A DNA stretch of 5,933 bases, from assembly GCA_002385675.1 (NCBI GenBank), contig DGDY01000268.1, positions 1 through 5,933 on the forward strand. The letters are read 5' to 3'. The DNA is from Anaerolineales bacterium UBA3940. GTDB taxonomy: Bacteria; Chloroflexota; Anaerolineae; Aggregatilineales; UBA3940. This document shows positions 3,218 to 4,422 of the stretch, one piece after another. A model generated the notes under the pieces. The model did not search any database, had not been told where the DNA came from, and was given only the letters and a program-made list of their open reading frames with translations. Numbering within the stretch: position 1 is the first letter of the stretch; every line of letters begins with the position of its first letter. The position numbers and the translations under genes were made by a program.

Positions 3218-3703
3218 ATGACTTATGACTTTGATCGCCAGCTTGCCGAGGGTGAGGCAGGCGAGGCCTTCCTCGATGAGTTCTTCCGGCGGCGCGGGCA
3301 TACCGTCCGCCCGGCCACGCGGGAGGAGCAGCGGCAGGGCATCGACCGCTTCATCATCACGCCGTCGGGCCGTAAGATGAAGGTCGAGTATAAGACCGAC
3401 CACATCGCCGCCCGGACGGGCAACGCCTTCGTCGAAACCGTCTCCGTGGATACCGCCGGTAAGATGGGCTGGGCGCTCACCTCCCAGGCGGATTACCTCG
3501 TCTACTTCATCCCCGGCCAGATGATCGTCGTGCTGCCGCTGCGCTCGCTGCGCTGGGCGCTGCCGGGCTGGATGCGCGAGTACCCGGTGCGGACCGCCGC
3601 CAACAACGGCTACACCACACACGGGCTGCTCGTGCCGCTCGCCGCGCTGCTGGAGTACGCCGTGCAGACCTTCCACCTCAACGGGGAGGCGGGCGGCGAG
3701 TAG
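3218..3703 (+). CDS. Small PD-(D/E)XK nuclease-superfamily protein
   Basis: A 161-residue soluble protein. An N-terminal helix (residues 9-27, GEAGEAFLDEFFRRRG) is followed by the core signature: D43 in QGIDRFII, a turn, then E57 and K59 in KVEYKTD. This D...ExK pattern with a leading Glu-containing helix is the hallmark of the PD-(D/E)XK nuclease fold, which binds Mg2+ to cut DNA or RNA. The continuation TGNAFVE (with E73) and TSQADYLVYFIP resembles small phage-type and Holliday-resolvase-like members, in which ADYxVY packs on the core. ATG 3218 has AGGA (3207-3210) at 7 bases. A weak TAGGAT (3206-3211) could also act as a -10 box for a nearly leaderless transcript, with only a poor -35 (TTGCGC, 3184-3189). 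Substrate and pathway cannot be told from sequence. No helicase, methylase or partner gene adjoins it. The fold assignment is fairly sure; catalytic activity is inferred. Confidence 0.82.
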   Translation: MTYDFDRQLAEGEAGEAFLDEFFRRRGHTVRPATREEQRQGIDRFIITPSGRKMKVEYKTDHIAARTGNAFVETVSVDTAGKMGWALTSQADYLVYFIPGQMIVVLPLRSLRWALPGWMREYPVRTAANNGYTTHGLLVPLAALLEYAVQTFHLNGEAGGE

Positions 3704-3762
3704 CCCGCCAGTGCACACCCTGGCCACCTGACCAGTATTCCCGAGCTGGCGCGATTCGGGGG

Positions 3763-3792
3763 TTGACATGGCGAAAAAAGCCATGATACACT
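3763..3792 (+). promoter_or_regulatory. Strong sigma-70-type promoter with extended -10
   Basis: A perfect -35 box TTGACA (3763-3768) is followed after 18 bases by TACACT (3787-3792), which matches 4 of 6 consensus -10 positions and is preceded by the extended -10 dinucleotide TG (3784-3785) at the right distance. The spacer carries six A's in a row. Transcription should start near 3799. This is the most consensus-like promoter seen in the window. Confidence 0.8.
3767..3785. promoter_or_regulatory. Operator-like palindrome in the promoter spacer
   Basis: CATGGC (3767-3772) and GCCATG (3780-3785) are exact inverted repeats separated by GAAAAAA. They sit exactly between the promoter elements, overlapping the end of the -35 box and the TG of the extended -10. 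A dimeric repressor bound here would block RNA polymerase. The position is suggestive; the arms are only 6 bp, so this remains a candidate. Confidence 0.45.
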
Positions 3793-3840
3793 GACACTTG
3801 GTTTGTAATGGGCAAACCCTTGATCCTGACGATGCCTAAA

Positions 3841-3847
3841 AAGGAGG
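3841..3847 (+). promoter_or_regulatory. Consensus Shine-Dalgarno AAGGAGG before the 32-codon ORF, with complementary segments downstream
   Basis: AAGGAGG lies 8 bases before ATG 3856, an ideal site that favours this ATG over the in-frame ATGs at 3808 and 3832. Two later segments of the same transcript could cover it: GTGCGCCT (3935-3942) pairs with 3845-3852, and CTCCTT (3964-3969) is an exact complement of AAGGAG (3841-3846), extendable by one G-U pair. Confidence 0.6.
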
Positions 3848-3855
3848 CGCACAAG

Positions 3856-3954
3856 ATGCAGAGCACAGCCGCTATCTTCTGCTACGGCGCTGCTGCTGCC
3901 TACATTGGCGGCGGGTTCGTTGTGCCTGCTCGGAGTGCGCCTGGCGATCGTTAG
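3856..3954 (+). CDS. Possible 32-residue hydrophobic small protein or leader peptide
   Basis: ATG 3856 to TAG 3952-3954 encodes MQSTAAIFCYGAAAAYIGGG and 12 more residues. Residues 5-24 are almost entirely small or hydrophobic and could form one membrane segment; the tail (PARSAPGDR) is polar and basic. It has the best Shine-Dalgarno site in the window and its own promoter and terminator. In-frame ATGs at 3808 and 3832 would give 48 or 40 residues but lack good sites, and 3808 lies in the 5' hairpin. Four consecutive Ala codons (residues 12-15) would suit an attenuator peptide; a lone hydrophobic segment would suit a membrane small protein or type I toxin. I recognise no family. The coding call is uncertain because the same bases form RNA pairings. 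Confidence 0.45.
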   Translation: MQSTAAIFCYGAAAAYIGGGFVVPARSAPGDR

Positions 3955-3981
3955 GTTACAGTTCTCCTTACTGAACCCTCG

Positions 3982-4017
3982 CGGTCACAGGCCACCACCG
4001 GCCCTGTGACCGTTTTT
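3982..4017 (+). terminator. Intrinsic terminator of the small transcription unit
   Basis: CGGTCACAGG (3982-3991) pairs with CCTGTGACCG (4003-4012) as a 10-bp stem. It extends by two more pairs (CC/GG) across a bulged C around an ACCACC loop, and TTTTT (4013-4017) follows at once. This is a textbook rho-independent terminator for the + strand; the other strand lacks a T-run. Confidence 0.92.
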
Positions 4018-4188
4018 GATTCAACTCTCACCGAGACGAACCAGACGGTTACACTCCCGAAGGGAGGGGGCGTGCTCCGACGCTGGCAGCACAGCTAGCA
4101 GAGGGGCGCTTTTTCGTGTGGTTAGTGATGGGATGATGAATCAGAGATGAGTGGTCGAGACAACGCACGACTCGAGGGGATGGAGAAG
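4018..4188. other. Intergenic stretch between the small transcription unit and the next gene
   Basis: No convincing gene or complete promoter was found. A TACACT (4050-4055) repeats the -10 of the strong promoter but has no matching -35. A very purine-rich GGGAGGGGG (4062-4070) precedes GTG 4072, which opens only 8 codons (VLRRWQHS) before TAG 4096-4098. GTGCT/AGCAC can pair across this mini-ORF (4072-4076 with 4088-4092). These are weak hints of a leader region for the following gene. Confidence 0.4.
4174..4180 (+). promoter_or_regulatory. Ribosome-binding site favouring the 4189 start
   Basis: GAGGGGA lies 8 bases before ATG 4189. The in-frame ATG at 4147 has no comparable site, and ATG 4180 overlaps this one. 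The shorter 77-residue product is therefore preferred. Confidence 0.55.
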
Positions 4189-4422
4189 ATGTACAACCAG
4201 CGGCAGAACCCCAAACAAAAGAGCCAGTTGAGCCGTGAGGAGATGGCTCTATACCTGGCTGCTCGCTTTGCCATGGCGCTGATGCAGAACGCGCTCATGG
4301 AAGCTGTGCAGTACGCCGACGACCTCGGCGGGCTGCAGGCGGGTGACATCCGCATCGACAGGCGGCTGCCGCAGGCGGGCCTGCCTGAGATGGGGCGCGC
4401 ACCGGCTGGTGACTTGCTGTAG
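4189..4422 (+). CDS. Small hypothetical protein, 77 residues
   Basis: I do not recognise this protein. From ATG 4189 it has a polar, Gln/Asn/Lys-rich N-terminus (residues 1-14), then one likely amphipathic helix rich in Ala, Met and Leu (about 15-46, SREEMALYLAARFAMALMQN and on), and a proline-containing tail ending PAGDLL. Charged residues within the helix argue against a membrane segment; a helical dimer or partner-binding protein is possible. Third codon positions are mostly G or C, like the neighbouring genes, which supports real coding. An upstream start at 4147 would add 14 residues. No clear promoter was found; it lies 172 bases after the terminator of the small transcription unit and 98 bases before the acetyltransferase gene. 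The opposite strand is also open here (4122-4472) but lacks any sign of a family. Confidence 0.6.
   Translation: MYNQRQNPKQKSQLSREEMALYLAARFAMALMQNALMEAVQYADDLGGLQAGDIRIDRRLPQAGLPEMGRAPAGDLL

What the first reader, a model, noticed from the sequence alone, without database searches (positions are those of the whole stretch)
3763..4017. Self-contained small transcription unit with strong promoter and terminator, no recognised family
Seen: a consensus -35 with extended -10, about 220 nt of transcribed sequence, and a textbook terminator, standing alone between ordinary genes. Multiple stems can be drawn by hand, including 8-bp and 9-bp nested pairings (3845-3852/3935-3942 and 3858-3867/3921-3929). 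Known: this architecture is typical of standalone sRNAs and small-protein genes. Inference: a previously undescribed structured RNA or dual-function RNA.
Basis: partly seen in the sequence, partly recalled or inferred. Interest (0 to 1): 0.75.

Follow-up and report, generated by a model that had tools for sequence, protein, structure and literature searches.

The report
Self-masked small-protein transcript
In a bacterium whose proteins place it in the phylum Chloroflexota, a short stretch between two genes carries a promoter-like sequence, a region computed to fold tightly as RNA and a terminator-like hairpin, and it likely makes a short messenger RNA that is predicted to hide the start site of a 32-residue membrane peptide; my searches found no relative of it, and neither transcript nor peptide is proven.

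Summary
Positions 3763-4017 carry the one outstanding sigma-70-like promoter of the window (TTGACA-18-TGATACACT; 2 like it in 1000 shuffles) and a 10-bp perfect terminator followed by T5 (none in 1000 shuffles). The ~219 nt between them fold far better than shuffles (z -5.5; central hairpin z -4.6). No Rfam family matches. It is not a missed 6S RNA: RF00013 passes its cut-off in 22 of 25 relatives.

The hairpin buries that start site (opening cost 19.4 kcal/mol; 0 of 150 shuffles reach it). I favour a self-masked small-protein mRNA that works like a type I toxin mRNA. Against this, codon use is unlike resident genes, and a search of 5.8 billion proteins found only the window's own.

Nothing homologous was found in 154 genomes of the order or 396 of the class, but no close relative is held. 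Covariation could not be tested. A non-coding sRNA remains a serious rival. Probably a lineage-specific member of a known kind; moderate interest.

The parts
3763..3792 (+). sigma-70-like promoter: TTGACA, 18-nt spacer, TGA TACACT (extended -10)
3767..3785 (+). perfect inverted repeat CATGGC-N7-GCCATG reaching from the end of the -35 box to the TG of the extended -10; operator-like, inferred
   Evidence: sole match in the window, exact; matches with up to 2 mismatches are expected 0.56 times by chance
3800..3818 (+). 5' hairpin GGTTTG/CAAACC, z -3.4 (0 of 200 shuffles); holds the upstream in-frame ATG 3808 in its loop
3825..3955 (+). long central hairpin: P1 3825-3836/3943-3955 (one bulged base), 8-nt bulge UAAAAAGG 3837-3844, P2 3845-3852/3935-3942, P3 3855-3869/3919-3931, P4 3893-3900/3907-3914
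   Evidence: z -4.55, 0 of 200 shuffles
3841..3847 (+). Shine-Dalgarno sequence AAGGAGG, its last three bases paired in P2
3856..3954 (+). small ORF (stop 3952-3954 included), 32 aa, MQSTAAIFCYGAAAAYIGGGFVVPARSAPGDR, one hydrophobic segment; the same frame is open from ATG 3808 (48 aa)
   Evidence: codon use argues against
3954..3977 (+). potential 3' hairpin GGTTACAGT/ACTGAACC (only four pairs of it in the minimum-energy fold) with loop UCUCCUU (3962-3968), complementary to the Shine-Dalgarno sequence; the match is not beyond chance
3982..4017 (+). intrinsic terminator, 10-bp stem and T5

Best explanation
Positions 3763-4017 likely form a one-gene transcription unit whose roughly 219-nt RNA is predicted to be a self-masked messenger for a 32-residue membrane peptide (ORF 3856-3951). 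Seen in the sequence: promoter boxes with an operator-like palindrome between them, Shine-Dalgarno AAGGAGG eight bases before an ATG, a hydrophobic ORF, and a terminator. Predicted: once the 3' arm (to about 3950) is made, the long hairpin closes over the start site. Opening the stretch from Shine-Dalgarno to start then costs 17-19 kcal/mol, against 6-11 kcal/mol for transcripts ending at 3875-3935. Inferred: the full-length RNA is mostly silent, and the peptide is made only by an early ribosome, after RNA processing, or when a partner opens the hairpin. It would thus work like a type I toxin mRNA; toxicity, an antitoxin RNA and a repressor of the palindrome are untested.
For: Promoter and terminator are far beyond chance. 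Duplex energy of the Shine-Dalgarno stretch with the 16S tail (tail recalled) is -12.2 kcal/mol; 2 of 154 ATGs of the window, this one included, are as strong (the GTG start of the M23 gene, not in that count, is stronger at -13.5). Hydropathy over 19 residues is 1.69; 36 of 2000 shuffled ORFs and 0 of 339 off-frame windows of the VWA gene reach it. Opening of the start region costs 19.4 kcal/mol; 0 of 150 shuffles reach that, and the six other starts tested cost 3.0-13.9. The hairpin is more stable than most synonymous recodings with resident codon use (14 of 500 as stable). A toxin mRNA whose start site is occluded by anti-SD pairing, in some cases by a distant partner, is described as a hallmark of type I systems (PMC6733600, passages read; see also PMC11228461, abstract and section 5 read).
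Against: GC at third codon positions is 0.59 against 0.86-0.90 in four resident genes and 0.78 in the 91-aa ORF. 0 of 323 32-codon gene windows have codon use as poor (the usage table came from four of the six genes, the other two give 0 of 37). This suits non-coding DNA. The only protein found among 5.8 billion is the window's own. Codons permuted within the ORF often fold as well (48 of 500). Anti-SD words are not enriched (6-mers: 243 of 2000 shuffles reach the observed count). The Shine-Dalgarno bases alone are only modestly occluded in the full-length RNA (10 of 100 shuffles as much or more) and no more than chance in transcripts ending at 3875-3935 (49-86 of 100). No convincing antisense promoter was seen. 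The ORF, Shine-Dalgarno and hydropathy tests were made after seeing the sequence.
Confidence: 0.42

Rival explanations
1. A stand-alone non-coding small RNA acting by base pairing, for example through its CU-rich 3' loop (UCUCCUU) on Shine-Dalgarno sequences of other mRNAs; the ORF is fortuitous.
For: Composition and codon use of the ORF fit non-coding DNA. Promoter, rod-like fold and terminator are a usual sRNA layout. No protein relative found. Part of the loop, 3965-3968, is largely unpaired in the ensemble (0.70-0.81; 3962-3964 only 0.05-0.38).
Against: The strong Shine-Dalgarno-ATG-hydrophobic ORF would be a coincidence. The loop's pairing with the start regions of window genes is ordinary (-5.6 to -11.6 kcal/mol; the 5% background quantile is -11.6). 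No homologues, hence no covariation.
Confidence: 0.3
2. A transcription attenuator: leader peptide plus terminator controlling read-through into the 91-aa ORF (4147-4422) and the acetyltransferase genes downstream.
For: The terminator lies about 130 nt upstream of the next ORF on the same strand, no good promoter lies between (best score 8.2), and 4018-4146 is itself structured (z -3.8, 1 of 200 shuffles).
Against: The terminator's 5' arm has no better alternative partner upstream than chance gives (61 of 300 shuffles as good), and forbidding the terminator's 3' arm costs about 19 kcal/mol (-82.1 against -100.9).
Confidence: 0.1
3. A relic or selfish insertion (for example a decayed mobile-element hairpin next to the nuclease-like gene 3218-3703) with no present function.
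For: GC 0.55 is below six of the seven other gap stretches measured (0.48-0.69), no homologues were found, and the neighbour is homing-endonuclease-like.
Against: Promoter, fold and terminator are all intact and correctly ordered. Only short or imperfect direct repeats in the 451 bp examined (8-24 nt). No shared element was seen after 18 related nuclease genes.
Confidence: 0.12

Closest known systems
AapA3 type I toxin mRNA of Helicobacter pylori (PMC6733600; passages read)
   Same: Short mRNA of a small peptide; Shine-Dalgarno masked by successive partners, the last one far downstream; full-length form translationally inert (here predicted only).
   Different: No antisense RNA recognised here, no sequence relation found, no toxicity or processing data; anti-SD words here are not beyond chance.
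timP mRNA, first annotated as the non-coding RNA RyfA (PMC11228461; abstract with start of introduction and section 5 read)
   Same: RNA taken for non-coding that encodes a small membrane protein; Shine-Dalgarno trapped in a very stable stem.
   Different: timP needs a pseudoknot for translation and has the sRNA TimR; neither is shown here. timP is described from enterobacteria.
Dual-function sRNAs such as VcdRP of Vibrio cholerae with a 29-aa protein (PMC8672173; start of abstract seen in a search listing only)
   Same: Size of the ORF.
   Different: No base-pairing target established here.
6S RNA (Rfam RF00013)
   Same: Rod-like hairpin (the model has 187 positions).
   Different: No Rfam match in the window; family genomes carry their own 6S RNA (22 of 25 over cut-off); the large internal bulge here is one-sided.

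Membership tests
Type I toxin-antitoxin (toxin mRNA) | Short hydrophobic peptide with one membrane segment | tested here: met
   by sequence only: 32 aa, hydropathy 1.69 over 19 residues; translation itself not shown
Type I toxin-antitoxin (toxin mRNA) | Start site sequestered in the full-length mRNA | tested here: met
   by prediction only: 19.4 kcal/mol to open, 0 of 150 shuffles; Shine-Dalgarno bases alone 10 of 100 shuffles
Type I toxin-antitoxin (toxin mRNA) | Antisense or trans-acting antitoxin RNA | tested here: inconclusive
   best minus-strand site within 3799-4200, 4163-4133, scores 9.0 against 16.9 for the sense promoter; a site of 11.6 at 3809-3783 points away from the ORF
Type I toxin-antitoxin (toxin mRNA) | Toxic when expressed without antitoxin; RNA processing or refolding | not testable with these tools
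   needs the bench
Any Rfam family | Covariance-model score at or above the gathering score | tested here: not met
   0 matches in the window; at E up to 10 in 3700-4150 one match of E 9.1, outside the unit
6S RNA | Match to RF00013 | tested here: not met
   none in the window though 22 of 25 family genomes match over the cut-off
Transcription attenuator | Alternative antiterminator pairing with the terminator arm | tested here: not met
   61 of 300 shuffled upstream sequences pair as well
Conserved structured RNA | Covarying base pairs among homologues | not testable with these tools
   no homologue found

The most novel reading that the evidence does not exclude
A type I toxin-like, self-masking small-protein RNA native to Chloroflexota: a repressor-controlled transcript that locks its own start site in a long hairpin and releases a 32-aa membrane peptide only during transcription or after processing. 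My one search for Chloroflexi together with type I toxin-antitoxin and small RNA, in openly licensed papers, found none.
Probability: 0.2. Interest if true: 0.6.

Novelty: new member of a known kind. Interest (0 to 1): 0.36.

Why it matters
My two searches for small or structured RNAs of Chloroflexi/Chloroflexota (openly licensed papers only) listed four papers, none of them, by title and start of abstract, a study of sRNAs in this phylum. A compact unit with clear borders is a good bench target: it would show whether small self-masked peptide mRNAs exist in this phylum and whether apparent non-coding RNAs there can be messengers. It also gives a clean case of a gap between genes with a likely transcript that homology search alone does not see.

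Tried and rejected
Known RNA families: none. tRNA/tmRNA: none. 6S RNA: rejected. Homologues by DNA: 2 of 154 order genomes and 4 of 396 class genomes gave 25-34-bp matches, five different places in all. Each lies under an open frame: four in frames of 90 or more codons and the fifth, L095, in the first codons of a frame that runs off its contig; none shows wider similarity to the unit, so they are taken as chance. By covariance model from the single sequence: 0 of 154 (E up to 0.1, stricter filters) and 3 of 25 at E up to 1. On inspection two lie within a gene that looks like a DnaJ C-terminal region and one within a glycosyltransferase-like gene, these names being my recognition of the translations; rejected. 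An extra weak hit in locus L017 (E 0.04, 54 bases) was not followed up. By peptide: only the window itself, none in viral contigs. Phage and plasmid records by DNA: none. Antiterminator: no. Pairing of the RNA with the region 4018-4146: 6 of 300 shuffles pair as well, but through one implausibly long duplex; left open. Conserved RNA after related nuclease genes: 18 loci looked at; L007 (z -3.7), L047 (-2.5) and L087 (-2.0) fold somewhat, Rfam finds nothing in these or in L005, and L047 and L007, the two read through, show no shared element with the unit 3763-4017.

Integron attC site: considered from the sequence (one arm lacks the AAC triplet, motif recalled), not tested with a program.

Full report
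WHERE IT IS. The window encodes, all on the plus strand, a MoxR-type ATPase and VWA pair (related to MadB/MadC models but far below their cut-offs), an M23 peptidase-domain protein, a 161-aa protein (3218-3703), then a 443-bp gap with the unit, a 91-aa ORF and two GNAT acetyltransferases. The VWA protein places it in Chloroflexota, in the clade of G001 (record title 'Chloroflexi bacterium') and nearest in the tree to G154 (97/92 support), but at only 61-66% identity to the 13 close rows compared. G002, in the same order, bears the title 'Anaerolineae bacterium'. No genome of the window itself is held.

THE OBSERVATION. The promoter is the best site of the window by a wide margin (16.9 against 11.6), with two like it in 1000 shuffles. 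The terminator (3982-4012 plus T5) has none like it in 1000 shuffles. The transcript 3799-4017 folds to -100.9 kcal/mol, z -5.5, no shuffle of 200 as low. Without the terminator the central hairpin 3825-3955 still has z -4.55 (0 of 200), and 3799-3980 has z -3.99 (0 of 200). A scan of 146 160-nt windows of both strands, 30 shuffles each, put 3921-4080 (z -4.9) and 4001-4160 (z -3.7) first; these hold the terminator and the region behind it, and no scanned window that holds the whole central hairpin is among the 12 listed, so the hairpin stands out only when its own borders are used. A perfect palindrome CATGGC-N7-GCCATG spans the promoter spacer, a place where a repressor could act (inference).

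A SMALL ORF INSIDE THE HAIRPIN. ATG 3856 follows AAGGAGG by eight bases; the frame runs 32 codons to a stop at 3952-3954. The Shine-Dalgarno match is among the two strongest of 154 ATGs in the window. The peptide has one 19-residue hydrophobic stretch (mean 1.69; 36 of 2000 shuffles reach it). In the fold, the last three bases of the Shine-Dalgarno sequence and two bases of the start codon are mostly paired. Opening 3841-3861 costs 19.4 kcal/mol, 0 of 150 shuffles reach this, and the six other start sites tested cost 3.0-13.9. For transcripts ending at 3875-3935 the cost is 5.9-11.4, for those ending at 3950 or later 17.4-19.4. So a brief window for translation followed by closure is predicted.

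AGAINST THE ORF. Third-position GC is 0.59, against 0.86-0.90 in four resident genes and 0.78 in the 91-aa ORF. None of 323 gene windows has codon use as poor (the usage table was made from four of these six genes, and the two left out give 0 of 37). The protein search found only the window's own 48-aa reading. Part of the fold follows from the peptide's own composition: permuting synonymous codons gives an equally stable hairpin in 48 of 500 trials, recoding with resident usage in 14 of 500, uniform recoding in 0 of 500. The complementary loop UCUCCUU is attractive but not beyond chance (243 of 2000), and the Shine-Dalgarno bases taken alone are not unusually masked in shorter transcripts (49-86 of 100 shuffles as masked) and only modestly in the full one (10 of 100). 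The ORF tests are after the fact.

RELATIVES. Nothing homologous was found: Rfam, phage and plasmid records, viral contigs by peptide, 154 genomes of the order by DNA and by covariance model, 25 nearest genomes with looser filters, 396 genomes of the class by DNA. The short matches of the genome searches, all inspected, lie under open frames and look like chance. The 91-aa neighbour is also restricted: four relatives in 5.8 billion proteins, 0 of 154 order genomes. An empty search with a single-sequence model and no close genome is weak evidence of absence.

READING. The unit is most likely a lineage-specific short mRNA that masks its own start site; the alternative of a non-coding RNA with a chance ORF is nearly as good. 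Masked start sites, in some cases with distant anti-SD partners, are described as a hallmark of type I toxin mRNAs (PMC6733600, passages), and timP was first annotated as a non-coding RNA (PMC11228461). Coding ORFs in bacterial sRNAs are reported to be enriched for membrane segments and predicted type I toxins (PMC5521070, passages). These support 'works like', not membership: no antitoxin RNA was recognised and toxicity is untested.

NOVELTY AND SCORE. New as a sequence as far as the searches above reach, but the kind (short structured transcript with promoter and terminator, perhaps a small-protein mRNA) is known. Interest is moderate, because function and even transcription are unproven.

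Noticed in passing
3218-3703: The 161-aa neighbour has 381 protein relatives, relatives encoded at eight loci of viral contigs, but only patchy presence in genomes (8 of 154 in the order, 25 of 396 in the class). No Pfam, NCBIfam or PDB sequence match. Its predicted structure (pLDDT 85) is closest to the homing endonuclease I-Ssp6803I (E 1.1e-3, probability 1.00, TM 0.51), then EcoRV; invariant G41, D43, E57, K59 fit a PD-(D/E)XK nuclease (motif recalled). Possibly a free-standing homing-type nuclease.
   Followed up: partly
4018-4146: A second strongly folded stretch (z -3.8, 1 of 200 shuffles) closed by GATTCA/TGAATC lies between the terminator and the 91-aa ORF, without a good promoter of its own.
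   Followed up: partly
4147-4422: The 91-aa ORF has only four relatives among 5.8 billion proteins; the best is 80 aa long and covers 88% of the query, which would fit a start at ATG 4180.
   Followed up: no
3-2085: MoxR ATPase (cut by the window's start) and VWA pair resembling MadB/MadC models but far below the curated cut-offs (203.9 of 475 and 174.8 of 600 bits); in the 14 loci with the closest VWA genes (L013, L015-L027) the ATPase gene lies just upstream too.
   Followed up: partly
L047 (reverse strand), about 95-230 bases after the stop of the nuclease-like gene: A relative of the 161-aa gene is also followed by a promoter-like site (TTGCCG-17-TGTTATACT) and a terminator-like hairpin about 100 bases on, of unrelated sequence.
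   Followed up: partly
4104-4118 and L007, about 100-125 bases after the stop of the nuclease-like gene: The 15 bases GGGCGCTTTTTCGTG occur in both; in L007 they end a terminator-like hairpin (seen by eye). Chance or a shared terminator type; not tested.
   Followed up: no
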